Source: a virus
Length of the DNA stretch: 57,411 bases
Reading direction: 5' to 3' (one strand)
Virus record (IMG/VR): IMGVR_UViG_3300027844_000349
Coordinates: 1-57,411 of that record
The notes beneath the pieces were generated by a model. That model was not told the DNA's origin, ran no database searches, and worked only from the letters and a program-made list of their open reading frames with translations. Numbering within the stretch: position 1 is the stretch's first letter; every line of letters begins with the position of its first letter. Shown one piece after another: positions 1,800 to 15,086 of the stretch. Made by a program: the position numbers and the translations under genes.

Positions 1800-2123
1800 T
1801 CAAACCATCGTATCACTAAGAGCTTTATTCTTTCTATCAAAGATATTGTTTCTAATTTGTTTCTCTTCTGTAATATATCCTAGCCCATCACAACGATGGC
1901 AGGAACCGTAAGAACCATCTGCTATAATATACTTACCATTAATACACCTAGGACATTGACTATCATAGTCGAGGGGTTTAATAGTAATTCCTCCTTCAGT
2001 ATCTTTACTCCAATCATACTGTGTAAAGCGAACTCCATATAAAAGACCATCACTTCCGTATACTTCATCAATATCATAGTCTATCATCTGTAAGTTATTA
2101 GTTATCCATGCTGCTAGTTTCAT
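1800..2123 (-). CDS. Small zinc-ribbon (DnaJ-like knuckle) protein
   Basis: A 107-residue protein with CPRC and CHRCDGLGY knuckles at about residues 57-82, the spacing and Gly pattern of DnaJ-type zinc-binding repeats. No J domain is present. The ATG at 2123 overlaps the stop of the upstream gene by 4 nt (ATGA), implying translational coupling. Possibly an adaptor or nucleic-acid-binding peptide. Confidence 0.75.
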   Translation of the reverse strand: MKLAAWITNNLQMIDYDIDEVYGSDGLLYGVRFTQYDWSKDTEGGITIKPLDYDSQCPRCINGKYIIADGSYGSCHRCDGLGYITEEKQIRNNIFDRKNKALSDTMV

Positions 2124-2311
2124 GTTGTTATCCTTTCTTTCTTAGCTGAGATTATATTGCTCCAAACTTCCCTCAGTATATTCATAGATATATGATGGCA
2201 GTTTATATGAGTATATAATATAGAAAATACTTCCTCCCTCTCAGAGTTATACTTATGTAGTACATAGAAATCTCTGTCAACTATCTCTTCTAAACATAGG
2301 TCACAATGCAT
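2120..2311 (-). CDS. Small CxxC protein
   Basis: A 63-residue protein starting MHCDLCLEEIVD, with one N-terminal CxxC and a later NCHH that could complete a zinc site. I chose the internal ATG at 2311 because it leaves an 11-nt overlap with the preceding gene; an upstream in-frame start would lengthen it. Function unknown. Confidence 0.6.
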   Translation of the reverse strand: MHCDLCLEEIVDRDFYVLHKYNSEREEVFSILYTHINCHHISMNILREVWSNIISAKKERITT

Positions 2312-2597
2312 TAGTAATCTTTCTCTTTCTATCTTTATTAGTCTTCTGGTTTTTTTGATGGTGAGTATTATGACCACCTAATCCTTTATCCCAACAGGAC
2401 ATACATGTACCATTAGCAAGTATCATTTCTTCAGAAGAATGTTTCCTATAGTATTTACTTTTTCTATTATACCATACGTTACATACTCCAAAGCTTTCTT
2501 CTGGTAATTGAATTGGTTCTATATATACACGTTTATCAAGAACCTTAGTGTATTCTCTCGTTTCCTGTACTATACCTATCCCCATAAAATTATTCAC
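2301..2597 (-). CDS. Small zinc-binding HNH-like hypothetical protein
   Basis: A 98-residue basic protein that begins at GTG 2597 with GGGGAG 7 nt upstream. The pattern FGVCNVWYNRKSKYY ... GTCMSCW ... HNTHHQKN, with paired cysteines and a His-rich C-terminus, recalls degenerate HNH or zinc-finger phage proteins. It overlaps both neighbours by about 8-11 nt. Assignment to HNH is weak. Confidence 0.6.
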   Translation of the reverse strand: MNNFMGIGIVQETREYTKVLDKRVYIEPIQLPEESFGVCNVWYNRKSKYYRKHSSEEMILANGTCMSCWDKGLGGHNTHHQKNQKTNKDRKRKITNAL

Positions 2598-2802
2598 TAC
2601 TCTCTCCCCATATGCTAGGTCTAGGAAAGCCTACTAGAACGCCTGCTTCTGTTCTTTGATCATTCTTTGATACTGTTACTTCATACATAATCTTATCATC
2701 TTTAGCTAAGACTAGGACTGGAAATCCTTGGACTATTTTGTAATCAACAATAGTATAGTCTAGGAACTGCCGATAGTAAACCTGTTTCTCTTCTGTAGTC
2801 AT
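2590..2802 (-). CDS. Hypothetical small protein
   Basis: A 70-residue product with a good ribosome site (GAAGGAGAGAGT before ATG 2802). The sequence alternates short strands (DYKIVQGFPVLVLAKDDKIMYEV) like a small beta sheet. First gene after stem-loop member 2. No family recognised. Confidence 0.65.
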   Translation of the reverse strand: MTTEEKQVYYRQFLDYTIVDYKIVQGFPVLVLAKDDKIMYEVTVSKNDQRTEAGVLVGFPRPSIWGESSE

Positions 2803-2840
2803 ACTCTCTCCTTCTCTTTATTACTATTTCTCCCCCCAGA

Positions 2841-2882
2841 AAAATAATATCTTTGGTCACAAAGAACCAAAGATATTATTTT
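2841..2882 (-). repeat. Stem-loop family member 2
   Basis: A perfect 16-bp stem (AAAATAATATCTTTGG) closes TCACAAAGAA. The stem is AT-rich, unlike the G-run stems of members 4-6, yet the loop is the same. On the minus strand it is followed by TTTTCT, so it may also terminate transcription. Its right arm overlaps the stop codon of the upstream gene. Confidence 0.8.
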
Positions 2883-3063
2883 AACAATCTACAACATGTT
2901 CACTATTAGATAGGTCAAGGTTTAGTTTTAATTTATATTCTACTGGCATCTTCTTTAAAACTAGTCTACACTGTATACATAGTTGTCTAGTAAAGTATTT
3001 CCTAGCCTTAGGATGTACAGCGAAACTTGTCTTACATATAGCACAGAGTTTTCTATTCCACAT
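2881..3063 (-). CDS. Zinc-ribbon protein
   Basis: A 60-residue basic protein with CAIC near residue 8 and CIQC near residue 29, a classic four-cysteine ribbon, followed by a Lys/Leu-rich helix. Likely nucleic-acid binding. The ribosome site is weak, and it lies 2 nt after the preceding gene, suggesting coupling. Confidence 0.65.
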   Translation of the reverse strand: MWNRKLCAICKTSFAVHPKARKYFTRQLCIQCRLVLKKMPVEYKLKLNLDLSNSEHVVDC

Positions 3064-3065
3064 AC

Positions 3066-3374
3066 TTATTTATTACCATAGACTGCTCTCGTTACCATCT
3101 GAGCTAAGTCTAATCCTTCATCAGTATAACCCAGTGTAGTTCCTCTCATTGGAATAGCATTCCTAATGAGTGGCCTAGCACCTAGTATAAATGAATCTTC
3201 TTCTACATTATAATGTAGTTCCAAAGCATGACAGAAGTCAGCAAAAGAATTTGTTAATTCATTAGGTAATTTCCTAGGTCTAGAATCATGTATGTCGCTA
3301 GGCTTAGAGGTAGATTCCAAGTCTATATATATGTCTGCTAATGCTTTATAAACGTGAGCAAATTTATGTTCCAT
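3066..3374 (-). CDS. Hypothetical protein
   Basis: A 102-residue protein with a helical N-terminal half and a Gly/Met-rich C-terminus. It overlaps the start-side neighbour by 11 nt. No motif recognised. Confidence 0.6.
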   Translation of the reverse strand: MEHKFAHVYKALADIYIDLESTSKPSDIHDSRPRKLPNELTNSFADFCHALELHYNVEEDSFILGARPLIRNAIPMRGTTLGYTDEGLDLAQMVTRAVYGNK

Positions 3375-3741
3375 TGAACTCCTTATACATATACTTCAGC
3401 TTCAGGTTAGTATAGATAAGATGTGCTTCTTGTTCCGAAGAACCATTACATAATGGACATGGGTATTCTGCCCCTTTCCAATCCTTTCCTACATACTCTT
3501 CATCATGTTCACCATCTAGATGTTCACATACAGGACAGTCTTCACCTTCATCAAACCCATGTCTGCAACAATAATCCTGTCCATACCCATCTCTTTCATC
3601 ATCGTAGTCACCTCTGTATACTCTTTCCTTTATACAGTCGTTACAGTCTCCTTCATTCTCACAGAAGCCATCTTCTATCGTGCAATTGATACCTGTCTTA
3701 TGACAGGACGGACAAGTATGACCGTTCTCATAATCGTGCAT
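3364..3741 (-). CDS. Cysteine-rich multi-zinc-knuckle protein
   Basis: A 125-residue acidic protein with four CxxC pairs (CPSC, CNDC, CPVC, CPLC) plus further cysteines and histidines, enough for two or three zinc sites. I favour ATG 3741 (MHDYENG), which overlaps the previous gene by 14 nt; a start at 3765 is possible. Probably a protein- or RNA-binding adaptor; function unknown. Confidence 0.65.
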   Translation of the reverse strand: MHDYENGHTCPSCHKTGINCTIEDGFCENEGDCNDCIKERVYRGDYDDERDGYGQDYCCRHGFDEGEDCPVCEHLDGEHDEEYVGKDWKGAEYPCPLCNGSSEQEAHLIYTNLKLKYMYKEFNGT

Positions 3742-3922
3742 TAGTATACATATTGAGGGGGTCATTCTTTGTTGTCATCCTAGAATACAACCTCATTCTC
3801 CTAACTAAGCTTAGTCCCTCATGTTCAGGCTGTCGTTCCACCATTCGTATTAGCATATCTTGTACTGTCCTAGGATTATCTTCTATCCAGTGCAGTATCT
3901 CATCTCTTTTATCTGGTTGCAT
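3728..3922 (-). CDS. Hypothetical small basic protein
   Basis: A 64-residue protein starting MQPDKRDE behind GGTGAG at 8 nt; an in-frame ATG at 3940 is an alternative. It looks like a short helical bundle with Arg-rich C-terminus. No family recognised. Confidence 0.55.
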   Translation of the reverse strand: MQPDKRDEILHWIEDNPRTVQDMLIRMVERQPEHEGLSLVRRMRLYSRMTTKNDPLNMYTNARL

Positions 3923-3923
3923 C

Positions 3924-4229
3924 TTAATACTCACCTTCATCTTCTAGTACGAATATGCAATTGTCTAGGCATCGACCACAAAATCCTGATGGGCCACCGT
4001 ATTTTACGGTGGACATATCCAACTCGATTGCTGGATATGCACCACAGCACTCTGATACATACATGTCTTCTTCCATTTTATTCTCCAATAATCGTATGAC
4101 TTCTTCTAGCCTAGAATCAGGCATATCATTTTGATGTTCTCCACATCTAGTACATGTGGTTTGATACTTCGGATGTATATACTCCTTTCTACATTCACAG
4201 TCCCAGTAGTCCTCTATAGTTACAAGCAT
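3924..4229 (-). CDS. Cys-rich zinc protein (CCGA type)
   Basis: About 101 residues with CEC, CTRC, ECCGA and CGRCLDNC clusters, consistent with two zinc sites. The paired ECCGAYPA ... FCGRC layout recurs in many small phage proteins of unknown role. I start it at ATG 4229 because the longer frame would run into stem-loop member 3. Confidence 0.65.
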   Translation of the reverse strand: MLVTIEDYWDCECRKEYIHPKYQTTCTRCGEHQNDMPDSRLEEVIRLLENKMEEDMYVSECCGAYPAIELDMSTVKYGGPSGFCGRCLDNCIFVLEDEGEY

Positions 4230-4241
4230 AACCCCACACAA

Positions 4242-4285
4242 AAATATAATATCGTGGTTCACAAAGAAGCCACGATATTATATTT
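4242..4285 (-). repeat. Stem-loop family member 3
   Basis: A perfect 16-bp stem (AAATATAATATCGTGG) with loop TTCACAAAGAAG. It sits directly before the ribosome site of the downstream gene, and the minus-strand 3' side runs into TTTTTG. Loop matches the other members while the stem is different and fully complementary. Confidence 0.8.
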
Positions 4286-4356
4286 AGATTCTCAACATTC
4301 CTTTTCAGTAAGTTTTAATTATCCTCTATATCAACACCCCTTGTATGCATCCTCCC

Positions 4357-4563
4357 TTAGTCTAAGTAATCAGTATTAATAGAATCAGATAGCTTTCTAT
4401 CAAGGTCAGTAGTGATACTATTCTTTGTTAGGATTTCTTGTAGTGTAGGATTCCGTTGGTCTATCTGTTCCTGATACTTATTAATTTCTTTATCGTCAGC
4501 AGTTCCAAAAGGATTTAGTAACGGGTCATTGCTTCTTAGGTCTATTGCTTTTTCACTAGGCAT
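4357..4563 (-). CDS. Hypothetical small protein
   Basis: A 68-residue hydrophilic protein starting MPSEKAID with AGGAG 8 nt upstream. Rich in Asp, Asn and Thr, probably a disordered or short helical peptide. Overlaps the previous gene by 8 nt. Function unknown. Confidence 0.6.
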   Translation of the reverse strand: MPSEKAIDLRSNDPLLNPFGTADDKEINKYQEQIDQRNPTLQEILTKNSITTDLDRKLSDSINTDYLD

Positions 4564-4726
4564 TTGATTTCTCCTCATCTATATTAAAAGATTCATAATA
4601 TTCTCGTTCTTCATCGCAACTTATACACCCATCTATTCCAGTAGAGTGATGTACTCTACAATAGATAACTCGTTCCCCATAAGTATCTTCATATTCTTCT
4701 TTAGTCATACTTAAATAGTCTTCCAT
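4556..4726 (-). CDS. Small CxxC protein
   Basis: About 56 residues, acidic, with YCRVHH and CISCDEE that could bind one zinc. ATG 4726 has AGGGGA at 10 nt; an ATG 18 nt downstream is an alternative. It overlaps the preceding zinc-ribbon gene. Confidence 0.5.
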   Translation of the reverse strand: MEDYLSMTKEEYEDTYGERVIYCRVHHSTGIDGCISCDEEREYYESFNIDEEKSNA

Positions 4727-4841
4727 AGCTATCGTATCCCCTGCCTTCCATCTTGTTTTTAATGCACCACCAACACCATCCACTATGTATTCTTTGATTA
4801 GGTATTCCTACATTCTTTCTCCCACATATGATACAATCCAT
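4701..4841 (-). CDS. Small zinc-ribbon protein, 46 residues
   Basis: The frame ATG 4841 to TAA 4701 encodes a protein with CIIC near the start and CWWC about 20 residues later, a compact four-cysteine ribbon. The coding pattern fits its neighbours and it fills an otherwise empty gap. Only weak ribosome signal (GGTAATATAATATA). Confidence 0.5.
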   Translation of the reverse strand: MDCIICGRKNVGIPNQRIHSGWCWWCIKNKMEGRGYDSYGRLFKYD

Positions 4842-4845
4842 TATA

Positions 4846-5058
4846 TTATATTACCTCTACTGAACTAAGATATTGTTCAACAGCTTTAATTAATTTATCT
4901 TTGCGTCTTATCTTAAAGCCATAGCCTTGTAGTATTCTCTTTGGGCTTGGAGGATTCCCTTTACCATTACGGTAATAGCTATAATTAACTTCTTCCTTTA
5001 AGTACTGAAGACACTGTACTAGTGAAGTATAAGTAATTCTAGTAACAACATCATTCAT
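4846..5058 (-). CDS. Small basic hypothetical protein
   Basis: A 70-residue protein, Lys/Arg/Tyr-rich, with a helical C-terminal segment. Starts 8 nt inside the end of the upstream gene. Possibly DNA binding from its charge; no motif recognised. Confidence 0.6.
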   Translation of the reverse strand: MNDVVTRITYTSLVQCLQYLKEEVNYSYYRNGKGNPPSPKRILQGYGFKIRRKDKLIKAVEQYLSSVEVI

Positions 5059-5236
5059 TAACTATCTCACCAGTGTTATTATACTGGTCAATCATTGTAC
5101 CCATCTTAATTATCTCATTCATACTAGTATGCTTAACAGATTCATCTGAACCATACAATAAGTTCTGAGTAAATATTCTAGCAGCAGCTTCCCACGTAGG
5201 AACTAGCCTAACGTATTTCTTTTCTTTGTCTGCCAT
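5051..5236 (-). CDS. Hypothetical small protein of recurrent phage type
   Basis: A 61-residue protein with the pattern PTWEAAARIFTQNLLYGSDESVK, helical. It shares TAATG with the upstream stop, with AAGGAAAC upstream, so translation is coupled. Function unknown. Confidence 0.65.
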   Translation of the reverse strand: MADKEKKYVRLVPTWEAAARIFTQNLLYGSDESVKHTSMNEIIKMGTMIDQYNNTGEIVNE

Positions 5237-5466
5237 TATATAGTTTCCTTTTTAAACATCATCTTCCTTAAGGATTCAATAGCAAGATGTATATGTCCGT
5301 TGTAGATTGACGAAAAGGGAGCTGAATTTTCTAGTTGTTCTTTGATAGTAACTCTTAATTCCCCATTCAACTTTCGCTGTTCCTCTGAAGCAGCTCTTAA
5401 TAATCTATTTTCAATTACTAATCTATGTACCTGTTTGCTAAGTATATCTATATCATCGTTTAGCAT
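5236..5466 (-). CDS. Coiled-coil small protein
   Basis: A 76-residue protein with heptad-like leucines in the first 45 residues (LSKQVHRLVIENRLLRAA), followed by an amphipathic helix. Probably self-associating; role unknown. Overlaps the upstream 41-residue gene by 7 nt. Confidence 0.6.
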   Translation of the reverse strand: MLNDDIDILSKQVHRLVIENRLLRAASEEQRKLNGELRVTIKEQLENSAPFSSIYNGHIHLAIESLRKMMFKKETI

Positions 5467-5585
5467 TGTAACCTCTTGCGTATAGCCTCAAGGACAACCT
5501 CTAAGGCTTTCCTATTATTCTTGTATGCTTTTTGATACCACTTCTTATTTCTTTTTTGTTCCCTCCTCTCTCCCTTAGTTGCCAT
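5460..5585 (-). CDS. Small, highly basic peptide (41 residues)
   Basis: ATG 5585 to TAA 5460 encodes a peptide with about 15 Lys/Arg residues (MATKGERREQKRNKKW...), a single long helix. It overlaps both neighbours by a few bases in the same style as the rest of the cluster. Likely nucleic-acid or ribosome binding by charge alone; unproven. Confidence 0.5.
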   Translation of the reverse strand: MATKGERREQKRNKKWYQKAYKNNRKALEVVLEAIRKRLQC

Positions 5586-5910
5586 CAGTCTCTAGATTCC
5601 ACATCTTATCAAACTTTTCTGTTGTAAGCATTCTATCTCTACTTACTAGTGCTCCTAAAGCAGTAGCAGTTTGAAGAAGTGTCCTAAAATCTCTGAGTTC
5701 ATCGTCTCTAGACGTTGTAGACTTTATACTGTATCCTATATATAATAAATATAAAGCTGCATCTACACCTTCTGAAGATAATGTATTTGTAACATGCTTA
5801 AAGCTGTCTTCATTATTTGGTGTGTTTAGCAACTGAGAAAGTAATGCTTGTCCTGCATTATATCTATCTCGACTCATATCGGGAATCGGGGATTCATTAT
5901 CATCCATCAT
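5575..5910 (-). CDS. Hypothetical helical protein
   Basis: A 111-residue, mostly helical protein starting behind AAGGAG. First gene of a unit preceded by a promoter-like motif (5958-5967) and a leader hairpin (5924-5962). No family recognised. Confidence 0.65.
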   Translation of the reverse strand: MMDDNESPIPDMSRDRYNAGQALLSQLLNTPNNEDSFKHVTNTLSSEGVDAALYLLYIGYSIKSTTSRDDELRDFRTLLQTATALGALVSRDRMLTTEKFDKMWNLETDGN

Positions 5911-5923
5911 AACTAAGCTCCTT

Positions 5924-5962
5924 ATAATTAGGGGAAGGTATTAAATACCTCCCCCCTATTAT
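5924..5962 (-). other. Leader hairpin between promoter and ribosome site
   Basis: A long inverted repeat (ATAATTAGGGG-AAGGTATT against AATACCTCCCCCCTATTAT) that starts within or just after the -10 box and ends next to the AAGGAG of the downstream gene. Its loop is not the TTCACAA loop of the main family. It could regulate start access or stabilise the mRNA. Confidence 0.5.
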
Positions 5963-5967
5963 ACCAT
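5958..5967 (-). promoter_or_regulatory. Extended -10 promoter candidate
   Basis: The minus strand reads ATGGTATAAT, a consensus TATAAT with the extended TGn element, about 50 nt before ATG 5910. I see no convincing -35 box. Confidence 0.5.
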
Positions 5968-5976
5968 AACTAGAAA

Positions 5977-6246
5977 TTATTTCTTAACGTAGGCGGTAAA
6001 GCCTAGGGTAAGAACCTTTCCACTAGGTAGGGTCATGATAGGGATGTTACCCCCTGTAGTAGCAACAACGTCAGTTTTACCTGATGATTTAGAAGGACGG
6101 GACTCAGCTACTTTGTTCCCATCAGTATCAAACAACCCAGTCCTTACTGAAATAGTCATCTGTCCATCAGGACTCACATCAACTACCACGTTGTCAAACT
6201 TTGCTGACCAGATATCAATTCCCTGACTATTAATAGGTTCCACCAT
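5977..6246 (-). CDS. Small beta-rich hypothetical protein
   Basis: An 89-residue protein starting MVEPINSQ behind AAGGAGTTTTATATT. Alternating hydrophobic pattern (NVVVDVSPDGQMTISVRTG; GKVLTLGFTAYVKK) suggests a small beta barrel or sandwich. It is an isolated gene bounded by stem-loop member 4 and the 5924 hairpin, so probably separately transcribed and perhaps abundant. No family recognised. Confidence 0.65.
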   Translation of the reverse strand: MVEPINSQGIDIWSAKFDNVVVDVSPDGQMTISVRTGLFDTDGNKVAESRPSKSSGKTDVVATTGGNIPIMTLPSGKVLTLGFTAYVKK

Positions 6247-6293
6247 AATATAAAACTCCTTACTATATAGTATGTATACATTAAACCCAACCA

Positions 6294-6335
6294 TATATTT
6301 AGGGGGGGTTCACAACGAATCCCCCCCTAAATATA
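6294..6335 (-). repeat. Stem-loop family member 4
   Basis: A perfect 15-bp stem (TATATTTAGGGGGGG) with loop TTCACAACGAAT. The stem is nearly the same as in member 6 but one G longer, and the opposite arm is matched. The left flank CCCAACCATA and right flank AAACCAAGCC also match member 6. Confidence 0.85.
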
Positions 6336-6372
6336 GAGCACGTAAACCAAGCCATTCTAAATTAGAACTACT

Positions 6373-6675
6373 CTATAGAAACCACAAAGGACTTTGGTTA
6401 CTAACGGTATTACTAAAGTTACTACTCGGTATACTCTTCAATTCACCAGGAAAATAGAAAGAACGTTTAGAAGCATAGGTAACTTCATCATCGCATACTA
6501 TCATCTGTGGGGAGAGAGTATTAAACCATCCAAATTCTATTTCAGTATTACATTCTACACAAGTTTCTAAACGAGAATACTTATGGTACTCTAGTTCAAA
6601 CTGCTTCCATAGACTTCCATTAGAATCTACACCAGAAATACTTTTTCTTCCATGAATATCCTTAAGGTTGTACAT
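6373..6675 (-). CDS. Small CxxC protein
   Basis: A 100-residue protein with CVEC near residue 39 and one later cysteine. The start has GGAGG at 7 nt and overlaps the upstream gene by 14 nt. Function unknown. Confidence 0.6.
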   Translation of the reverse strand: MYNLKDIHGRKSISGVDSNGSLWKQFELEYHKYSRLETCVECNTEIEFGWFNTLSPQMIVCDDEVTYASKRSFYFPGELKSIPSSNFSNTVSNQSPLWFL

Positions 6676-6931
6676 CCCATTCCTCCGCTATTGGTTGAGT
6701 ACATGATGAGCATCCCTTTGCTGGTCTACTCACCACCATTTTATTTCCAGGCTTCTTATTTCGCTTAGGAATATAGACTGACTGCATAGATGCTACTCTG
6801 TCTGGTGGTAGTACCTCCCCACATTCAGGACAGCACATACATTCTATACAATAGTTTCCTTTGTTATGCCCATTGTTTATATACTCTACAACAAACTTAG
6901 TTTCTGCACATCCTGTACACATCCCTTCCAT
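6662..6931 (-). CDS. Double zinc-ribbon protein
   Basis: An 89-residue protein with CTGC, CIEC-MCCPEC and CSSC clusters: enough cysteines for two zinc ribbons. Starts on TAATG with the upstream stop. Probably a small nucleic-acid- or protein-binding factor; function unknown. Confidence 0.65.
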   Translation of the reverse strand: MEGMCTGCAETKFVVEYINNGHNKGNYCIECMCCPECGEVLPPDRVASMQSVYIPKRNKKPGNKMVVSRPAKGCSSCTQPIAEEWDVQP

Positions 6932-7146
6932 TAAGGTGTTACCTCCAGCAGTTCTTCTACCTGTTCTACCCAGTCAAACTGTTCATCCTCTAACTCAAAG
7001 TAATCTTCACTGGTTTCTATGACTACATCAGTACCCCTAAATTCCCCAGTCTCCCATTTATTAATTGCTTCTTTCTCTGTCTCAGCATCAACAACATACA
7101 TCCCTTGTTGATAGTAATATTTATTGGTATATATGTTCCACTTCAT
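6931..7146 (-). CDS. Small acidic protein downstream of mom
   Basis: About 71 residues, starting MKWNIYTNKYYY at the ATGA overlap with the stop of the Mom-like gene; the C-terminal half is very acidic (EDYFELEDEQFDWVEQVEEL). Acidity recalls DNA-mimic or regulatory phage peptides, but that is only a resemblance. Co-translated with the Mom-like gene. Confidence 0.6.
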   Translation of the reverse strand: MKWNIYTNKYYYQQGMYVVDAETEKEAINKWETGEFRGTDVVIETSEDYFELEDEQFDWVEQVEELLEVTP

Positions 7147-7934
7147 ATGCACACTGCTTCCTTATGAGAATTAACATTCGCTTTATTAACATTGACTACA
7201 CTTAAATCAAACCAAGGCATTGATTCAAGAGGTTCATATTTTTTATAACCTGTTTTAATTTTCCATTTTAAATCTTCTTCCTTAGGATAATTCTTAGTCC
7301 ACTTAACTGTGGAAGTAGCCATAAGTTTCTTAGCCTCATTACTAAGAGGATGTATATATCTAAACTGCTTACCCTTTATTCTTTTAATATTTTTATGTGC
7401 CATGAAGTCATCTGTTAACCAGAAGATTTTCTCTTTACCTGAGAAGATAGCATTCTCTTCTAGCAACTTCCTAGTAGACCTAGGATGTATCTTCTCTCCA
7501 TCTGGCCCAATGTATATATCAGTCCAGATGAACCCACCATACCAGAAATTGAATGCTTGATATACATACCCTGCCTTCCCTACAATCCCATCAGCCCAGG
7601 TATATAGAAACTTCTTTTCAGGACAGTTAAGTTTGAACCACTTAAAAACCTTGGATAGCATCTGAGTCTCTGAGTTTCTAGGATAGCTGTCGTCCATACA
7701 CATCTTACCAATTTCATAATAGTCTTTACTCCCCAACGATGGAAATAATTTATGGATAGTATTGTAAGGCTGGGTTCCCCAGCCTAGTGTTAATACTCCA
7801 GCTAATATATCCCCATCATAAATACCAAGGTAATGTTTAGTCAACCTAGGCATTACTTTAGAGTAATGCCTAGCTTGAATGAAGTCTACTGCTGTACGAG
7901 CATCAAGCTCTTGTATATAAAAATCATACTTCAT
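7143..7934 (-). CDS. mom: Mom-like DNA adenine modification protein
   Basis: A 263-residue GNAT-fold protein of the phage Mu Mom type. Mom converts adenine in phage DNA to a carbamoylmethyl derivative, which blocks many restriction enzymes. Visible signatures: ARHYSKVMPRL (residues 21-31), HYLGIYDGDILAGVLTLG (34-51), MCMDDSYPRNSETQMLS (78-94) and YTWADGIVGKAGYVYQAFNF (111-130). The start ATG 7934 lies inside the end of a 37-residue zinc-ribbon gene and lacks a good ribosome site, so translation probably depends on that upstream gene. Family assignment is from pattern memory; the exact modification made here is inference. Confidence 0.8.
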   Translation of the reverse strand: MKYDFYIQELDARTAVDFIQARHYSKVMPRLTKHYLGIYDGDILAGVLTLGWGTQPYNTIHKLFPSLGSKDYYEIGKMCMDDSYPRNSETQMLSKVFKWFKLNCPEKKFLYTWADGIVGKAGYVYQAFNFWYGGFIWTDIYIGPDGEKIHPRSTRKLLEENAIFSGKEKIFWLTDDFMAHKNIKRIKGKQFRYIHPLSNEAKKLMATSTVKWTKNYPKEEDLKWKIKTGYKKYEPLESMPWFDLSVVNVNKANVNSHKEAVCI

Positions 7935-8037
7935 TGTTATCTGGATGATTCTTACAATCATTACAGGTATTTTTAATGGTAACTGGAATCCCTGTTGTAT
8001 AGGACAACATCCGACAACGCCAACAAATATATTTCAT
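7924..8037 (-). CDS. Com-like zinc-ribbon peptide overlapping mom start
   Basis: ATG 8037 to TGA 7924 encodes 37 residues with CWRC near the N-terminus and CNDC near the C-terminus. In phage Mu the zinc-finger protein Com is encoded directly upstream of mom, overlaps it, and opens an inhibitory stem-loop so mom can be translated. The same layout is seen here: an 11-nt overlap, no good ribosome site for mom, and a short inverted repeat (ATGATT / AATCAT) about 10-25 nt before the mom ATG. It is shorter than Mu Com and the homology is not proven. Confidence 0.65.
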   Translation of the reverse strand: MKYICWRCRMLSYTTGIPVTIKNTCNDCKNHPDNNEV

Positions 8038-8291
8038 GGTATCTCCTCTATTCGTAGTTCATCCTTCTTGTCTACATCCCAATAGAATACTGTATCAGGG
8101 TCAGTACATTCTTTCTTATACTGTAGCATATCCTGAAAACCTTCTGGATTATTGTGGTAGTATTCTATCTTTGCCTCAATGTAGTATTCTTGTAGGGATG
8201 TATAATCCATACTAGTTAACTCCCATTCTGCTAAGTCTAGTATTGCTTCTTCTAGTCTTTCCTCATTATAGTCATCATCTATTCTATCCAC
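8034..8291 (-). CDS. Acidic hypothetical protein
   Basis: An 85-residue acidic, helical protein with an apparent GTG start at 8291 that overlaps the upstream stop. Its own stop overlaps the Com-like start (ATGA). Function unknown. Confidence 0.6.
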   Translation of the reverse strand: MDRIDDDYNEERLEEAILDLAEWELTSMDYTSLQEYYIEAKIEYYHNNPEGFQDMLQYKKECTDPDTVFYWDVDKKDELRIEEIP

Positions 8292-8577
8292 AAGGTTTTC
8301 TTACACTCCTATAAGCCATCCAAGCATCGTTAAACTCTACAGCATTACGCTTATCCTCGTAGTGTTTCTGCATATGGTATCTATAGAAATCTTCCAACTC
8401 CATGTCTGCTATCTTATCTAGTTGGTATTCTATCACATCATCAATCATCTTGTATATAGAATCGGCGTAAGGTATATCTCCCTCCCTATCCCACTGTTGG
8501 TTATGTTTCAACCTAACATACTCTAAAGAATTATCCTTACCTTCTTCAGGACTAATGTGTGAATATGCTACTCCCAT
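8284..8577 (-). CDS. Hypothetical helical protein
   Basis: A 97-residue charged protein with Tyr/His-rich helix (DFYRYHMQKHYEDKR). Starts at ATG 8577 after AGAGGGGG. Heads the small unit that includes the Com/Mom-like pair. No family recognised. Confidence 0.65.
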   Translation of the reverse strand: MGVAYSHISPEEGKDNSLEYVRLKHNQQWDREGDIPYADSIYKMIDDVIEYQLDKIADMELEDFYRYHMQKHYEDKRNAVEFNDAWMAYRSVRKPCG

Positions 8578-8604
8578 TATAACCCCCTCTATTTAGTAAG
8601 CTAC

Positions 8605-8691
8605 TTACAGCAACCACGATAGCCATACTCCTGTAGCAATTAATCCATTAGTTGTTATCATCCATACCTGTATTATAACTGTCTTACTCAT
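8605..8691 (-). CDS. Single-TM micropeptide (28 residues)
   Basis: ATG 8691 to TAA 8605 encodes a hydrophobic peptide (MSKTVIIQVWMITTN...), a single predicted membrane span. The start overlaps the preceding gene's stop. It fills a gap that has no other frame. Plausible but unproven. Confidence 0.35.
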   Translation of the reverse strand: MSKTVIIQVWMITTNGLIATGVWLSWLL

Positions 8692-8866
8692 TATTTATTG
8701 TCTCCCTATGTAATTTATCTGCACAAGGGGCACAAAGCATTACTACTGTACCCCCAAGATTCTGCCATGAGAAATATGTTTTATGCATATCATCTTTAGC
8801 TGCAACCCCACATGGACATATGTATATACTTTCTTCTTTATACTGTACGTTCTTCTTTCTTGCCAC
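8684..8866 (-). CDS. Small zinc-binding protein
   Basis: A 60-residue protein with CPCG and CAPC, a probable single zinc site, plus a basic N-terminus. Follows the Api92-like gene directly. Function unknown. Confidence 0.65.
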   Translation of the reverse strand: MARKKNVQYKEESIYICPCGVAAKDDMHKTYFSWQNLGGTVVMLCAPCADKLHRETINNE

Positions 8867-9388
8867 TTACGTAGTCTCTCCTAAGTATCCTGCAAACTGC
8901 ATACCTGGCTCATCATAGAACCATGAGATATGTACATCAGGATGTTGTAGCTTGAGGGTTTCATAGATACTTTCTGGTGGCCCCCAAGCAGTATCAAATG
9001 TATAGACTATATAATCTGCTTCGTAATCTTCCAGTCTAACTTCACAAGCATCCCACTTGCAAGTCCAGTTATCACTACACCAATCATACCAATTATTATG
9101 ACCGTACTTTTCTATGAGTTCGTGACTTCTTTGTTTAGTAATAGGTAAGTTACCCAATGCAAACTCTGACTCAGAACGATCTTTCTTATACTTTTCTATA
9201 TCTTCTTCAGCATCTACTATAGTAACAGGAGAACCTATCCCATGCAACTCATCAGGGAATGGGATAATAGCATCAAAGCTAAACAGATTATTAAAATTAC
9301 TACTGTATCCTTTAACTGCCTCTTTAAATGCTTTCACATCTGCTGCATCACCAGATATTGTTACTCGATTGCTACACCAATTAGGCAT
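8867..9388 (-). CDS. Api92-like / DUF1281-type phage protein
   Basis: A 173-residue protein beginning MPNWCSNRVTISG, the hallmark start of the Api92-like family of phage and plasmid proteins. Later parts fit too: an aromatic middle (NNWYDWCSDNWTCKWDA) and a C-terminal ferredoxin-like strand set (YTFDTAWGPPESIYETL). The family has no firmly established role. The ATG at 9388 overlaps the upstream stop; GGAG lies about 9 nt upstream. Confidence 0.8.
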   Translation of the reverse strand: MPNWCSNRVTISGDAADVKAFKEAVKGYSSNFNNLFSFDAIIPFPDELHGIGSPVTIVDAEEDIEKYKKDRSESEFALGNLPITKQRSHELIEKYGHNNWYDWCSDNWTCKWDACEVRLEDYEADYIVYTFDTAWGPPESIYETLKLQHPDVHISWFYDEPGMQFAGYLGETT

Positions 9389-9584
9389 CGTCATCTGCTC
9401 CGCTAAAAATTTGGTCTTGACACGACTGACAGTATCCACTAATCATGTATTCTTTTCTACTGACTTCATCAATAAAAATGAACGCTTCATCTCCACACTT
9501 AACACAATGCTGCATCTCAATAGATACTCTCATCGACCTACCGTATAAACTTAAAGCTATCTTCTCTGCAAAATCCTCAACCAT
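9381..9584 (-). CDS. Zinc-ribbon protein
   Basis: A 67-residue protein with CVKC and CQSC about 25 residues apart, beta hairpin between, and acidic end. Starts on a TAATG overlap. Typical small phage zinc ribbon. Confidence 0.65.
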   Translation of the reverse strand: MVEDFAEKIALSLYGRSMRVSIEMQHCVKCGDEAFIFIDEVSRKEYMISGYCQSCQDQIFSGADDDA

Positions 9585-9775
9585 TATTCTTTATCCTCTT
9601 CTATACTTCTATAGGTATCCAATGCTTGTTGAGCTGCCTCTAACTGAGTTCTAAGGGAACTGTTAACTGAGTGAAGAATACGTACTGACTCAGCTAAAGA
9701 TAAATAATCCTCAAACAATACTAACGAGACATCCTTCGGTTCCATATCTGGTATCTCATTTATCATTAGTGACAT
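9584..9775 (-). CDS. Coiled-coil hypothetical protein
   Basis: A 63-residue protein beginning MSLMINEIPD on the TAATG overlap with the upstream stop. The C-terminal half is a Leu/Gln/Ala coiled-coil-like helix. Function unknown. Confidence 0.6.
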   Translation of the reverse strand: MSLMINEIPDMEPKDVSLVLFEDYLSLAESVRILHSVNSSLRTQLEAAQQALDTYRSIEEDKE

Positions 9776-9993
9776 TAAATTTGTTGCTCCTTCTCTTCTA
9801 GTACTTGAAATACTCTCCACATAGAAGGGAAACTTTCCTGAAGGATTGATAACATATCTGCCATGTCACTATCCTGTCTCTCAGTTATAGAAGTTACTTT
9901 GCCTAATTCTTTATGAGCTATGTATAAAGCTTTAGCAATAATAAACTTCCCCCTCAGTGTATTACTCAATAGTTCTTGTGTGTGTACTGGCAT
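9775..9993 (-). CDS. Helical hypothetical protein
   Basis: A 72-residue helical protein resembling the small accessory proteins seen in many phage early regions; no motif. Coupled by overlap on both sides. Confidence 0.6.
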   Translation of the reverse strand: MPVHTQELLSNTLRGKFIIAKALYIAHKELGKVTSITERQDSDMADMLSILQESFPSMWRVFQVLEEKEQQI

Positions 9994-10178
9994 TAGTCAT
10001 CACCCTTTATTTCTTTCATTTCAGTGTAGTTATTTTCAAAGTCTTCCAAACCTTCTTCACTAGAATAATATTCTTCTAGTTGTTGTTTAGCATATGTTTC
10101 TAATTCAGGTATATCCATATGCTCAACAATCCATTCTGTTAGTTCTTCTATCTGCTCTTCTTTATTACCAGAGGTCAT
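9993..10178 (-). CDS. Small acidic protein
   Basis: A 61-residue very acidic helical protein (many Glu, ends KGDD) with TAGGAGAAGG before ATG 10178. Acidic small early proteins often inhibit host DNA-binding proteins, but nothing here shows a target. Confidence 0.65.
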   Translation of the reverse strand: MTSGNKEEQIEELTEWIVEHMDIPELETYAKQQLEEYYSSEEGLEDFENNYTEMKEIKGDD

Positions 10179-10332
10179 AACCTTCTCCTAACTTATTTCT
10201 ACAAACCTGACAGAACTTACCGTTCTTCTCTAGCAATTTCTTACCACAACTGTAGCAACCATAAAAGGGAATTGTGTTTCTCCACGGTCTGTAACTATCC
10301 TTATCTTTTTTATGTGTAGCATTCTTAGCCAA
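10165..10332 (-). CDS. Zinc-ribbon protein with TTG start (55 residues)
   Basis: The frame from TTG 10332 to TAA 10165 has AGGAGAGG 8 nt upstream and encodes a basic N-terminus followed by CYSC and CQVC, a four-cysteine ribbon. The TTG start is decided by the ribosome site. It overlaps neighbours by 8 and 14 nt. Confidence 0.6.
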   Translation of the reverse strand: MAKNATHKKDKDSYRPWRNTIPFYGCYSCGKKLLEKNGKFCQVCRNKLGEGYDLW

Positions 10333-10768
10333 GTCTTGTACCTCTCCTTACTGTACGTCTAGTATAACTACGCTTCTGTTCTCCAATAGGATATGGCCCC
10401 CCAAGAAATGGTAGTAAATTTCTAACGTGGCTTATAAGTATATCATACTTCCCATCTATTTGTGCGAAGGCCCAACCACCACTATCTATAAAGTACATAT
10501 CATATTCAATGAGGACATCTGTATTTAAATGGAAATTCTTATGCTTGGATACTAAGGATAAGATACGTTTCTCAACTCCCTTAGTTCTACTAGACTCACT
10601 GTTATATTTAAGTATAGGAATGTCTCTTGTTCGTACTGTTTCACTTAAGTCAAGTATAGAAACACCGACATTATCATCAGCCCTGATATTACTAAGAGAA
10701 ATCTCTCGTACTGAGATAGCATTGTTTACCTCCTTTGGTTTATTTTTAGAACCTTTTCTTCTGCCCAT
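10325..10768 (-). CDS. Hypothetical basic protein
   Basis: A 147-residue protein with a basic start (MGRRKGSKNKPKE, an AT-hook-like GRRKG) and a basic end (YTRRTVRRGTR) around a beta-rich core. Possibly DNA binding. Function unknown. Confidence 0.65.
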   Translation of the reverse strand: MGRRKGSKNKPKEVNNAISVREISLSNIRADDNVGVSILDLSETVRTRDIPILKYNSESSRTKGVEKRILSLVSKHKNFHLNTDVLIEYDMYFIDSGGWAFAQIDGKYDILISHVRNLLPFLGGPYPIGEQKRSYTRRTVRRGTRLG

Positions 10769-10769
10769 G

Positions 10770-10997
10770 TTATTCTGCCTCCACTATCTGTGCAAAGATA
10801 GTAACATATCCATACTGTTGTTCAAACCAAGCATACATGCTGAACAAGAATGGAAATATTCTTACCCTATTATTTAAAGTATCTGTAAGATAGAGCGTTA
10901 AGTTAGTTCTAGTTAGATGGAACCTACCTCGTTCAGTAGTCTTAGTCTCTCTAGAAAACCAGCTAGGTATATCATCAATTGGTATGAAGATTATCAT
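10770..10997 (-). CDS. Hypothetical protein
   Basis: A 75-residue aromatic, beta-like protein. The ATG at 10997 overlaps the previous stop as ATGA. No family recognised. Confidence 0.6.
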   Translation of the reverse strand: MIIFIPIDDIPSWFSRETKTTERGRFHLTRTNLTLYLTDTLNNRVRIFPFLFSMYAWFEQQYGYVTIFAQIVEAE

Positions 10998-11254
10998 CTC
11001 CAATCTTGATTCTCTATCCTATTAATATATCTATTTAACCATAGACCTAACCCAATCCTAAACCTAGCTTCCTCCTTAAGAGTTGGGAACTCATTCTTAT
11101 TAGTGAAAGCTAGGGCTAGGTTAAAGCCATTAATAAAATCTATTGGGTCATCAAGCATGATATCACGGGAGAAGATACGAGGGTCTAGAAACTCCTCCAA
11201 TGCTTCTGGACTAACAAAGTTTTTAAAGTAATCCAAATCATAATTATCCATCAT
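10994..11254 (-). CDS. Hypothetical protein
   Basis: An 86-residue protein with Phe/Leu/Asp-rich helices, AGGAGAAG before ATG 11254. Follows the DUF932-type gene. Function unknown. Confidence 0.65.
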   Translation of the reverse strand: MMDNYDLDYFKNFVSPEALEEFLDPRIFSRDIMLDDPIDFINGFNLALAFTNKNEFPTLKEEARFRIGLGLWLNRYINRIENQDWR

Positions 11255-11273
11255 ATACTTCTCCTTAATATCT

Positions 11274-12317
11274 TTAGTTACATAGAGACAAGGCAGTTTT
11301 AAATGCCCTACTCTTAGCTTCAGCTCTCATGCCAAAGATAGAAGTAGCAGAATTAGCACGGCCTTTACGGAAATCCTCTGTCTCTACTACAGCTTGCCAT
11401 GCTCCCCAAGGAGTATTAGCTAGCTTGCTATTCTTATCATTAAAGAATTGATACCTATCCCATGCTCCAGTACGAATAGCATCTAAACGATTAAGCCGCC
11501 TTTCATACTCATCTTGATGATGGGTCTTGTCATTTAGAATAGACAACCAAACTTCTTTACTCACATCATCAGGAGTAATGTCCTGAGATAGAGTAAGTCT
11601 ACGAGGTTTAGATGCTTCAGGATATGCAGAATTAATAATAGTCATGGCTTCTGTATTATCAATCCTATACTCTGCTAGTCTATTCATGACAGGGATAACC
11701 TTTTCTTTAGCCTGGAGCATGTTATTAAATAGGTAGACATACCACTCAGCATCTTGCTGAATGTTACGGTTATGCTTTAGGTTTACAGATACCTTAGCAG
11801 AAGCTAATCCAGTAGTCAAGGTGTTCTGACACACTACCCGTACTGGAGTGAAGGCAATAGATAAAGCACCCATGCCATCACGATGGTCTGTAACTAGGTA
11901 ATACATATGATGGTCTTCACCAGCGATGGCTCCCTCACCTGCATCTAGTGTCATGAATATCTTTTCACCATGACCTAGGGCACCCATAGTTTCTACGGGA
12001 TATGTCTCAGAGATAGGGTCTAGCATCTTAGCTAAGTCCCAAGCCTGGATAGGAGTCCATTCTTTACCTACCATTGATAGAACCCTATCTTGAGGGTCAT
12101 CATCAGTAGGTTCACGAACTACACCATAATGTCCAGACTCCATGAACTGCCCATTCTCAAGCTGAATAAAAGCAGGGAGTTTCCTAACAGGGAAACCAAT
12201 CTTAGATATCTTCATCGCTTCAGTAGCTGTCATATCAGCATCCATAACTGTACCGACTCGATGCCATGCTGGAGTCCGACGACCAAAGAACCTGTCACCA
12301 AATATGTTAGCTGCCAT
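11274..12317 (-). CDS. DUF932 / TIGR03299 phage-plasmid protein
   Basis: A 347-residue member of the family found on phages and plasmids (phage/plasmid-like protein TIGR03299, DUF932). The opening FGRRTPAWHRVGTV, the middle YYLVTDHRDGMGALSIAFTPVRVVCQNTL and the later KVSVNLKHNRNI are typical, and the length is normal. The family's function is not settled; it often sits with recombination or anti-restriction genes. AAGGAGACAG precedes the ATG. Confidence 0.88.
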   Translation of the reverse strand: MAANIFGDRFFGRRTPAWHRVGTVMDADMTATEAMKISKIGFPVRKLPAFIQLENGQFMESGHYGVVREPTDDDPQDRVLSMVGKEWTPIQAWDLAKMLDPISETYPVETMGALGHGEKIFMTLDAGEGAIAGEDHHMYYLVTDHRDGMGALSIAFTPVRVVCQNTLTTGLASAKVSVNLKHNRNIQQDAEWYVYLFNNMLQAKEKVIPVMNRLAEYRIDNTEAMTIINSAYPEASKPRRLTLSQDITPDDVSKEVWLSILNDKTHHQDEYERRLNRLDAIRTGAWDRYQFFNDKNSKLANTPWGAWQAVVETEDFRKGRANSATSIFGMRAEAKSRAFKTALSLCN

Positions 12318-12333
12318 AATTTATTCTGTCTCC

Positions 12334-12564
12334 TTATCTTCGTGTGTTAGCATTTTCTTGAGCAAGGATTCTTCTGCGTTCTTCAGAAGACATGCGGGAA
12401 GGCTTTACTTTACTAGGGTCTAACTGTTTAATAGAATTAAACTCTAGGTTGTGGTCAGAAGGTCTTTGCATTAGACCTCCCTTACTGGGTATCTGAACAC
12501 AACCTGATTCATTAGCTCTATTCATCGTGGGCTTACCACTAAGTATATACTTTTTACGGCTCAT
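12334..12564 (-). CDS. Basic hypothetical protein
   Basis: A 76-residue, basic, probably disordered protein (Ser/Arg/Lys-rich). TAATG overlap with the preceding gene; TAGGAG upstream. Function unknown. Confidence 0.65.
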   Translation of the reverse strand: MSRKKYILSGKPTMNRANESGCVQIPSKGGLMQRPSDHNLEFNSIKQLDPSKVKPSRMSSEERRRILAQENANTRR

Positions 12565-13190
12565 TAAGTTCGTACTCCTACTTGTCTACTTATACCCTTG
12601 TCCATTCTCCACTGCAACCATGTCTGCGCTTGAAGTACATTGGGATGGACACCCCTCAACTTAGCTGCTTTGACATAGGCTCCTGATATTCTCTTATAAA
12701 TGACAGGAGATTGCAATTGATTCAACTCTCGTTCTGCAAGTGACCGACCCATATACACTGCGGAAGCATGTCGGTCTACTACAGGATGGTTATCCCCAGT
12801 AGGGTCAACTATGGCTTTATAGAAAGGAACAACCTTACGTCCTTTCAATACTTCTAATGGATGTTCTCCATCTAGGATACGGAGAGCTTTCATATTGTTA
12901 ATAGTAGTCTGTCCTGTAGCATGACCTGTACCTATTAACATGTGTGCCATATGAATGTTGTCTCCCCACTCAGTTTGTGGAGATAGAGCTGCTAGTATAC
13001 CAGCCCCTACTTGTACTCGTCCAGCATCACCTTTATATCCAGCCAACTTACCTAAGCTAATAGCAACCTCATGTGCTTCAGGATACCACCGTTCTCCAAT
13101 TACTTCACACTCATCACTGAGTTCTAGATTAAGAATATTTCGGAAGCTGCCCTTGACATCATTAGTTCGCTCTTTCTTATAGTTACGCAC
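12564..13190 (-). CDS. Conserved phage protein (DUF7178-like)
   Basis: A 208-residue protein from GTG 13190, chosen because AAGGAG lies 9 nt upstream. It has the pattern WYPEAHEVAISLG ... GAGILAALSPQTEWGDN ... VVDRHASAVYMGR ... AYVKAA, which I associate with a family common in actinophages (DUF7178, from memory). The helical layout with a late conserved Asp-Arg-His-Ala recalls helix-hairpin-helix DNA glycosylases, but that link is a guess. Confidence 0.7.
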   Translation of the reverse strand: MRNYKKERTNDVKGSFRNILNLELSDECEVIGERWYPEAHEVAISLGKLAGYKGDAGRVQVGAGILAALSPQTEWGDNIHMAHMLIGTGHATGQTTINNMKALRILDGEHPLEVLKGRKVVPFYKAIVDPTGDNHPVVDRHASAVYMGRSLAERELNQLQSPVIYKRISGAYVKAAKLRGVHPNVLQAQTWLQWRMDKGISRQVGVRT

Positions 13191-13244
13191 TGTTCTTTTC
13201 TCCTTCAAGAAAAATATAATATATACCCCATACACACCAAGTAA

Positions 13245-13284
13245 AAATAGTGGGGGGGTTCACAAAGTAACCCCCCCACTATTT
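13245..13284 (-). repeat. Stem-loop family member 5
   Basis: A perfect 14-bp stem (AAATAGTGGGGGGG) with loop TTCACAAAGTAA, identical to the loop of member 6. On the minus strand the stem is followed by TTTTTAC, so this copy could act as an intrinsic terminator before the downstream gene's promoter. Confidence 0.85.
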
Positions 13285-13309
13285 AGGTAAAGCCAAGTCA
13301 AGCCCGTAG

Positions 13310-13525
13310 TTATACTAAACGTATATCAACATTAGCTATACAAGTAGTATTGTAACCATCCCCTAAAAATATTGTCCCGTATGATTCTCTATACTCCACA
13401 CGACAACGTAAGCAGAAGCACGTCTTGTTCTCTGTAATCCACTTCAATTGAGCTATAGCACTTTGAGCACTGACAGCATCAACTGTTGCTACGGCATCAT
13501 TATATTTAATGTCACTGTATATCAT
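13310..13525 (-). CDS. Small zinc-ribbon-like protein
   Basis: A 71-residue protein with CFCLRC in the middle and one later cysteine. GAGGAGG before ATG 13525. Function unknown. Confidence 0.65.
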   Translation of the reverse strand: MIYSDIKYNDAVATVDAVSAQSAIAQLKWITENKTCFCLRCRVEYRESYGTIFLGDGYNTTCIANVDIRLV

Positions 13526-13526
13526 C

Positions 13527-13712
13527 TTAGTCTACCTCCTCATATGTATCAATAGTTTCTTGGTGTTCTTTGTAGCTATCCTCACAACCCACACAGACTA
13601 GTTCTTTATTATAATCTACAGTCATAGTAGTAAAATAAGAATAGTCTTCATCTATATAAGCACACAGATAGCATTGATATGTTGAGTATACTTCTTTAGA
13701 ACTCACTTTCAT
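13527..13712 (-). CDS. Small zinc-ribbon protein
   Basis: About 61 residues with CYLC and CVGC separated by a beta hairpin. Start assigned to ATG 13712; an upstream GTG is possible. Overlaps the coiled-coil gene by 17 nt. Function unknown. Confidence 0.6.
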   Translation of the reverse strand: MKVSSKEVYSTYQCYLCAYIDEDYSYFTTMTVDYNKELVCVGCEDSYKEHQETIDTYEEVD

Positions 13713-13929
13713 AATCTCCAACGGCACTCTCCAACTCTACGATAACTTCATCCAGTTCCTCAAGTTGACTGTAAAGCTCATCGGCCTTACCCAGGTTCTC
13801 CTCTAGAACAGTATCTAACTCTTCTAGACGCTGAGTCTTTTCTGCAATACTATCCTTAGTAGACTGTGCATCTCCCCTTGCTATTTCTATTGCACCCATC
13901 AACTCTTGGATTACGGAAGCTGTAGTCAT
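13696..13929 (-). CDS. Coiled-coil acidic protein
   Basis: A 77-residue protein predicted to be one long coiled coil (regular Leu/Val/Glu heptads through the whole length). CAGGAG before ATG 13929 and a promoter-like box 36-46 nt upstream. Role unknown. Confidence 0.65.
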   Translation of the reverse strand: MTTASVIQELMGAIEIARGDAQSTKDSIAEKTQRLEELDTVLEENLGKADELYSQLEELDEVIVELESAVGDYESEF

Positions 13930-13964
13930 TATTGTTTTCTCCTGTATTATTTATTTATTCTAAT

Positions 13965-13975
13965 ATTGTACCACA
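13965..13975 (-). promoter_or_regulatory. Extended -10 promoter candidate TGTGGTACAAT
   Basis: Lies between stem-loop member 6 and the coiled-coil gene. It carries the TG extension and one mismatch in the -10 hexamer; no clear -35. Confidence 0.5.
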
Positions 13976-13988
13976 AACCCACCAACCA

Positions 13989-14028
13989 TATATTTAGGGG
14001 GGTTCACAAAGTAACCCCCCTAAATATA
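13989..14028 (-). repeat. Stem-loop family member 6
   Basis: A perfect 14-bp stem (TATATTTAGGGGGG) with loop TTCACAAAGTAA. Flanks: CCACCAACCATA on the left and CAGCCAAGCCAACC on the right, shared in part with members 4 and 5. Placed directly upstream of a promoter-like box. Confidence 0.85.
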
Positions 14029-14061
14029 TATACCAGCCAAGCCAACCAACATACTTAATTA

Positions 14062-14407
14062 CTATTCAAATTCATATCTATAATCAGTCCCTTGTTCTAC
14101 TCTTACTATATATGCTTTCAGCATTTTAAAGATTCCTAAAGAGATACCCAGTGAATTAGAGATTTGAGACTGGCATTCCACACAAGATACTCTAGCATCT
14201 TCACACTCACTATGTATATCAAAACTATTTATTGTACATAGCCCCCTTAAAAATTCCCTATCAGGATGCAGTAGTAAACGGAAACATACAATCTGAATGG
14301 GCTACCCAACCATGAGCACTTTCTATAATACCTAGTATAGGTATGAGAGTATCAGGGAATAGCTCTTGTGTAGCTGTGAGTCTATTACATACTAGACAAG
14401 TATTCAT
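14062..14407 (-). pseudogene. Frameshifted zinc-ribbon gene (or two frames)
   Basis: ATG 14407, behind GGGAGGTGA, opens a 48-residue frame with CLVC and HSDC that stops at 14261. The frame shifted by +1 then stays open from before that stop to TAG 14062 and contains HSEC and CVEC but has no usable start of its own. Joined, the two would give a plausible protein of roughly 115 residues with two cysteine pairs. Either a real +1 shift, a decayed gene or a sequencing indel near 14280-14300. Confidence 0.5.
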
Positions 14408-14477
14408 ACGATTGTCACCTCCCGTTTATGCGAATGTTTATCCGCTGCTTTGTACAACAAGTATAGCATAAGCATCC

Positions 14478-14960: not shown

Positions 14961-15084
14961 ATTGTATTTTCCTCCTAGTATTGCAACGGGTACATTCAAT
15001 GCCTACCTCTCCTCTAAGGATATACAGGACAGAGAACTTATGCTCCCTGCATAGCAAACAAAAAACTCGTTTTAGTATCTTCAT
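14938..15084 (-). CDS. Com-like zinc-ribbon peptide (48 residues)
   Basis: ATG 15084 to TGA 14938 encodes a basic peptide with CLLC and, about 25 residues later, CTRC in the context IECTRCNTRRKI. This ordering, a late Ile-x-Cys-x-x-Cys followed by basic residues, resembles the phage Mu Com zinc finger. It overlaps the next gene by 23 nt. It might be a translational regulator. Confidence 0.55.
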   Translation of the reverse strand: MKILKRVFCLLCREHKFSVLYILRGEVGIECTRCNTRRKIQYDTTTRR

Positions 15085-15086
15085 CT

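What the first reader, a model, noticed from the sequence alone, without database searches (positions are those of the whole stretch)
7143..8037. A com-mom-like DNA modification pair
A Mom-like modification enzyme is preceded by a 37-residue zinc-ribbon gene that overlaps its start by 11 nt. The mom start has no good ribosome site, and a 6-bp inverted repeat (ATGATT/AATCAT) lies just before it. In phage Mu, Com is a zinc-finger translational activator encoded in the same position. A smaller but equivalent control may exist here. The modification would protect the phage against restriction.
Basis: partly seen in the sequence, partly recalled or inferred. Interest (0 to 1): 0.72.

Follow-up and report, generated by a model that had tools for sequence, protein, structure and literature searches.

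The report
Phage Mom gene without real Com
This uncultivated virus carries a genuine Mom-type enzyme that probably modifies its DNA against host restriction, but the tiny zinc-finger gene in front of it is an interchangeable neighbour that relatives keep elsewhere or lack, so it is probably not a Com-like controller.

Summary
The long ORF (7143-7934, minus, 263 aa) is a true Mom family member: Pfam Mom E=3e-51, and its AlphaFold model's best PDB match is the Mu Mom crystal structure 8bv8. The 37-aa gene (7924-8037) is a real but unrelated small CxxC protein. It does not match Pfam's Com family, whereas Mu Com does in the same scan. The Com RNA motif is absent from the mom leader. Linkage to mom is not conserved: a relative whose mom is 98% identical over the 129 residues available lacks the gene and has another gene directly upstream; two relatives keep it about 1.4 kb downstream of mom; six others (mostly partial contigs) show none. 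Small CxxC genes are common here (11 of 42). The 4- or 11-nt overlaps follow from mom's own first codons and occur with unrelated upstream genes. The 6-bp repeat is not conserved. Most likely mom is translated by ordinary stop-start coupling to whichever cistron precedes it; here that is a zinc-finger gene from a two-gene insertion or deletion. In passing: 19 of 80 Mom loci carry a second, divergent Mom gene nearby.

The parts
7143..7934 (-). mom: Mom-family DNA modification enzyme, 263 aa, GNAT-like fold; ATG at 7934 (the in-frame ATG at 7961 is not conserved in relatives)
   Evidence: Pfam PF25680 E=3e-51, phrog_1384 1e-38, PDB 8bv8 by sequence 6e-19, by profile 2.4e-23 and by fold 5e-14; start conserved in relatives
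   Evidence: ORF; homologs in L003, L005 and L009 contigs with the four Cys conserved and dN well below dS; no PF10122 match
8043..8048 (-). Shine-Dalgarno GAGGAG of the small gene, probably also the entry point for ribosomes that go on to mom
   Evidence: duplex dG -7.2
7945..7961 (-). 6-bp inverted repeat ATGATT-GTAAG-AATCAT inside the small gene's coding sequence (within the codons for NDCKNH)
   Evidence: not in L003, one-base mismatch in L005/L009 where the small gene is away from mom
7916..7956 (-). predicted 12-bp helix (arms 7945-7956 and 7916-7927) with the mom ATG in its loop; excludes the 6-bp repeat; not conserved
   Evidence: dG -8.0, z -1.44; absent in L003 and in L188 whose mom is 98% identical
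8034..8291 (-). 85-aa gene of unknown function, second gene of the two-gene stretch (7924-8291) missing between the 8284-8577 homolog and mom in the nearest relative

Best explanation
A true Mom enzyme gene sits in a dense row of overlapping small minus-strand genes. Ribosomes load at the good Shine-Dalgarno of the preceding gene, read it to its stop (TGA 7924-7926), and restart at the overlapping mom ATG (7934). Reading through the small gene would also melt any local hairpin over that ATG. The preceding gene happens to be a 37-aa CxxC protein in this genome. In relatives other genes do the same job, so control by a Com protein is not needed. Mom itself (GNAT fold) would modify adenines in phage DNA and so block restriction. 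Shown: Mom membership and fold, gene order, overlaps, lack of conserved linkage. Inferred: translational coupling, DNA modification, protection, function of the small gene.
For: Mom: PF25680 3e-51, 8bv8 by profile and by fold; His23, Tyr24, Glu74, Asn87, Ser88, Glu89, Asp115, Tyr125 invariant in 33 aligned sequences; Mu S124 (mutated to A in 8bv8) is Thr90 here, S or T in all 33. Small gene is unlinked: contig 3300009786_001116 has mom 98% aa and 94.6% nt identical over the first 129 codons, no small gene in the contig, and the homolog of 8284-8577 ending 3 nt before mom; identity drops to 31% in the 120 nt before the ATG. L005 and L009 hold the small gene about 1.4 kb downstream of mom. L004, L006, L007 (64.7 kb contig), L008, L010 and L011 show none. 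Of 45 non-redundant mom loci 13 have a 4-nt and 5 an 11-nt overlap with varied upstream genes, and only 4 have an upstream ORF with two or more CxxC.
Against: No expression data; coupling is inferred from gene overlap and the missing Shine-Dalgarno. The small gene resembles Mu Com in its start (MK.I) and in the Cys spacing x2-x16-x2, and in the 86% relative L003 a homolog again precedes mom although the gene before it differs, which could hint at a linked pair. Contigs are mostly incomplete, and L188 holds only the first 129 codons of mom at a contig end. Com acts in trans, so a copy located away from mom does not by itself exclude regulation.
Confidence: 0.82

Rival explanations
1. The small zinc protein is a Com analogue: it binds the mom leader RNA in trans, opens a hairpin over the mom start and switches on mom translation, as in phage Mu.
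For: Position, 11-nt overlap, no Shine-Dalgarno before mom, mom ATG in the loop of a predicted helix, four conserved Cys with the Mu Com spacing in the window copy; adjacency also in L003.
Against: No Com profile match, no CC(N)2-3GAG motif (Mu control has two), helix and repeat not conserved, mom 98% identical over 129 residues without the gene, gene located away from mom in L005/L009. Cys spacing is x15, not x16, in the homologs.
Confidence: 0.08
2. The small protein has its own phage function (host takeover, anti-defence or regulation of another gene) and only shares the transcript with mom. This is compatible with the best explanation and differs only in assigning the small protein a separate role.
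For: Conserved protein with low dN/dS at two different places in related phages, with a strong Shine-Dalgarno in the copies examined; one of 11 small CxxC genes of this region.
Against: No function can be named; no homolog found in 50,697 phage records or in bacterial and archaeal genomes by pattern.
Confidence: 0.55
3. The Mom homolog is inactive or has another substrate, so no adenine modification results.
For: Window has Thr where Mu Mom has Ser124; no experiment on this clade.
Against: Ser and Thr alternate at this place in 33 aligned sequences that keep the other motif residues; long, intact, conserved ORF in many phages.
Confidence: 0.1

Closest known systems
Phage Mu Mom (PF25680; PDB 8bv8; phrog_1384)
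   Same: Family profile, fold and key motif residues; about 30% sequence identity
   Different: Not in a Mu-like late operon; a different virus lineage; Thr instead of Ser at the Ser124 position
Phage Mu Com (PF10122, Zn_ribbon_Com; PMC6483171)
   Same: Small, four Cys in two CxxC pairs, lies before mom and overlaps it
   Different: No profile or BLAST similarity; 37 aa without Mu Com's C-terminal tail; 11-nt overlap against 80 nt as annotated in Mu; no Com RNA motif; not linked to mom in relatives
Mom of Methylophilales phage Melnitz, Psychrobacter phage Y8A, Edwardsiella phage ET-ABTNL-9
   Same: Closest named Mom relatives, 45-50% identical
   Different: No small CxxC gene directly precedes mom there

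Membership tests
Mom (PF25680) | Match to the family profile | tested here: met
   E=3e-51 over 202 of 202 positions, cut-off passed
Mom (PF25680) | Mom/GNAT fold | tested here: met
   AlphaFold pLDDT 86; best PDB match 8bv8 E=5e-14, TM 0.61-0.78, then GNAT acetyltransferases
Mom (PF25680) | Residue at Mu Ser124 (S124A is the inactive mutant of 8bv8) | tested here: inconclusive
   Thr90 here; Ser in 24 and Thr in 9 of 33 aligned sequences
Mom (PF25680) | Adenine modification of DNA | not testable with these tools
   needs DNA or a bench assay
Com (PF10122) | Match to the family profile | tested here: not met
   No match at E<=10 in the genome or for the protein; Mu Com 2.7e-9 in the same scan, 1.2e-10
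Com (PF10122) | Four-Cys zinc finger, C-x2-C-x16-C-x2-C | tested here: met
   Met in the window copy, x15 in homologs; a 46-aa gene at 4701-4841 has the same x16 spacing, so not specific
Com (PF10122) | CC(N)2-3GAG target motif in the mom leader (PMC6483171) | tested here: not met
   None from -150 to +30 of mom; two in Mu. A different Com could read a different motif
Com (PF10122) | Hairpin over the mom start (translation inhibition structure) | tested here: inconclusive
   A helix is predicted in the window only, z -1.44, not conserved; the shuffle test does not single out Mu's own region either (z -0.19)
Com (PF10122) | Linked to and upstream of mom | tested here: not met
   Upstream only in own lineage and L003; elsewhere or absent in other relatives
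Com (PF10122) | Activates mom translation | not testable with these tools
   needs a reporter assay

The most novel reading that the evidence does not exclude
A recently recruited small zinc protein, unrelated in sequence to Com, controls translation of mom in this virus lineage (window and L003) by opening the hairpin over the mom start: a convergent Com.
Probability: 0.06. Interest if true: 0.55.

Novelty: new member of a known kind. Interest (0 to 1): 0.22.

Why it matters
It adds a well supported Mom enzyme from an uncultivated virus lineage and shows that a com-like look (small CxxC gene, overlap, weak ribosome site) can arise without a Com. Overlaps of 4 or 11 nt come free with the mom start codons, so they should not be used as evidence for a com-mom operon.

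Tried and rejected
Homology of the small gene to Com: blastp, Pfam, PF10122 search of the genome, all negative. Search for the small gene in phage records and genome contigs: nothing. Other patterns in IMG/VR gave only the four known relatives plus chance matches. RNA folding z-scores do not discriminate, because Mu's own leader is not significant either; conservation was used instead. AlphaFold of the 37-aa protein is too poor to use (pLDDT 68). The longer mom start at 7961 was rejected because relatives start at the MKY... The terminase-based set of relatives proved mostly mom-less, so it does not inform the pairing.

Full report
Observation. The reported parts exist. On the minus strand a 263-codon ORF runs from ATG 7934 to 7143, preceded by a 37-codon ORF (8037 to 7924) that overlaps it by 11 nt. 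The small ORF has a good Shine-Dalgarno, GAGGAG (dG -7.2), while mom has none in the window (0.2). The repeat ATGATT/AATCAT is at 7945-7961. Taken one by one these features are common here. 11 of 42 small genes in the first 16 kb carry two or more CxxC motifs, 61% of neighbouring genes overlap, and about 15% of 60-nt stretches hold such a repeat.

Mom. The long ORF is a Mom family protein: Pfam PF25680 E=3e-51 over the full model, phrog_1384 1e-38, about 30% identical to Mu Mom and 45-50% to Mom of Melnitz, Y8A and ET-ABTNL-9 phages. The only PDB relative by profile is 8bv8, methylcarbamoylase Mom. An AlphaFold model from 33 aligned sequences (pLDDT 86) has 8bv8 as its best fold match, followed by many GNAT acetyltransferases. 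HYS, NSE, AD and YQ motifs are invariant in the relatives. The residue at Mu Ser124, mutated to Ala in the inactive 8bv8 protein, is Thr here and Ser or Thr in all 33.

The small gene is not Com. Mu Com scores 2.7e-9 with PF10122, but the window protein and its homologs from L003 and L005 do not match that family at all, nor does anything in the genome (control). BLAST finds nothing. MAFFT can place the four Cys against Mu Com, with the same x16 spacing, but the homologs have x15, and an unrelated 46-aa gene of the window (4701-4841) also has x16. Mu-type Com binds CC(N)2-3GAG in a hairpin near the mom start (PMC6483171). That motif is absent from -150 to +30 here and present twice in Mu.

The pairing is not conserved. 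Homologs of the small gene were found in only four IMG/VR contigs: the window's own lineage (L002), L003, L005 and L009. In L003 (mom 86% identical) a 28-aa version overlaps mom by 4 nt, with a different gene before it. In L005 and L009 it lies about 1.4 kb downstream of mom; the L005 copy has its own Shine-Dalgarno, dG -7.1. In L004, L006, L007, L008, L010 and L011 it is not found in the contig; L007's contig is 64.7 kb and has the terminase too, the others are partial. The strongest case is contig 3300009786_001116. Its mom is 98% identical in protein and 94.6% in DNA over the first 129 codons. The contig has no small gene, and the homolog of window gene 8284-8577 ends 3 nt before the mom ATG. 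The window therefore differs from it by a two-gene stretch (7924-8291). Similarity stops at the mom start codon (31% in the 120 nt before it).

Overlap and repeat. Mom genes of this group begin ATGAARTATRA or similar. This start carries a stop in both other frames, so an ORF reading into it ends with a 4-nt or 11-nt overlap. In 45 non-redundant loci 13 have 4 nt and 5 have 11 nt, with upstream genes as different as a DNA methyltransferase (L046), a family B DNA polymerase (L068) and a 60-aa acidic protein (L004). Only 4 of the 45 have an upstream ORF with two or more CxxC, and two of those are the window lineage and L003. The 6-bp repeat lies within the codons for NDCKNH of the small protein. 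It is missing in L003 and has a mismatch in L005/L009. A 12-bp helix holding the mom ATG in its loop is predicted for the window (dG -8.0, z -1.44) but not for L003 or for L188, whose mom is 98% identical. The same folding test does not single out Mu's leader either (z -0.19), so folding alone decides nothing.

Mechanism. The simplest account is translational coupling: ribosomes enter at the small gene, melt any local structure as they read it, stop at 7924-7926 and restart at 7934. In relatives other genes take this role. This is inferred; no expression data exist. Mom would then modify adenines and protect the DNA, inferred from the family. The small gene shows low dN relative to dS (short alignments, so rough) and is a real protein of unknown function.

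Virus. The window is a whole IMG/VR record. Portal and capsid are most like haloarchaeal tailed viruses, yet it encodes a sigma-70 region 2 protein, family A polymerase, RecA and a ribonucleotide reductase. The host is not known.

Verdict. Mom: real, a new member of a known family. Com-mom pair: not supported; a convergent regulator is not excluded but unlikely (about 6-8%).

Noticed in passing
L026:2275-3000 with L026:3001-3780; also L012, L013, L015-L017, L019, L020, L023, L030, L033-L039, L041, L050: 19 of the 80 Mom loci carry a second, divergent Mom-family gene (Pfam Mom 7e-23 in L026, 28-29% identical to its neighbour), directly upstream of mom in most and up to about 0.3 kb downstream in a few. 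Its C-terminus carries a CC...CPKC zinc-ribbon-like tail. Some lie on contigs of 95-380 kb. A tandem pair of unlike Mom enzymes may deserve its own look.
   Followed up: partly
window 26085-28106, 20820-22184, 42963-43547: Portal and major capsid protein are closest to haloarchaeal tailed viruses (HVTV-1, HCTV group), but the virus encodes a sigma-70 region 2 protein, family A DNA polymerase, RecA and a ribonucleotide reductase, which speaks for a bacterial host.
   Followed up: partly
window 1800-16358: The small-gene region holds 11 genes with two or more CxxC pairs out of 42 small genes, and the order of homologs is shuffled between close relatives.
   Followed up: partly
L046:2162-3004, L068:470-3004: In other viruses mom directly follows and overlaps by 4 nt an N6/N4 DNA methyltransferase gene or a family B DNA polymerase gene.
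   Followed up: no
L022:1898-2068: An unrelated 56-aa CxxC gene overlaps mom by 4 nt in another virus, the only other small zinc-type gene directly upstream of mom among 80 loci.
   Followed up: no
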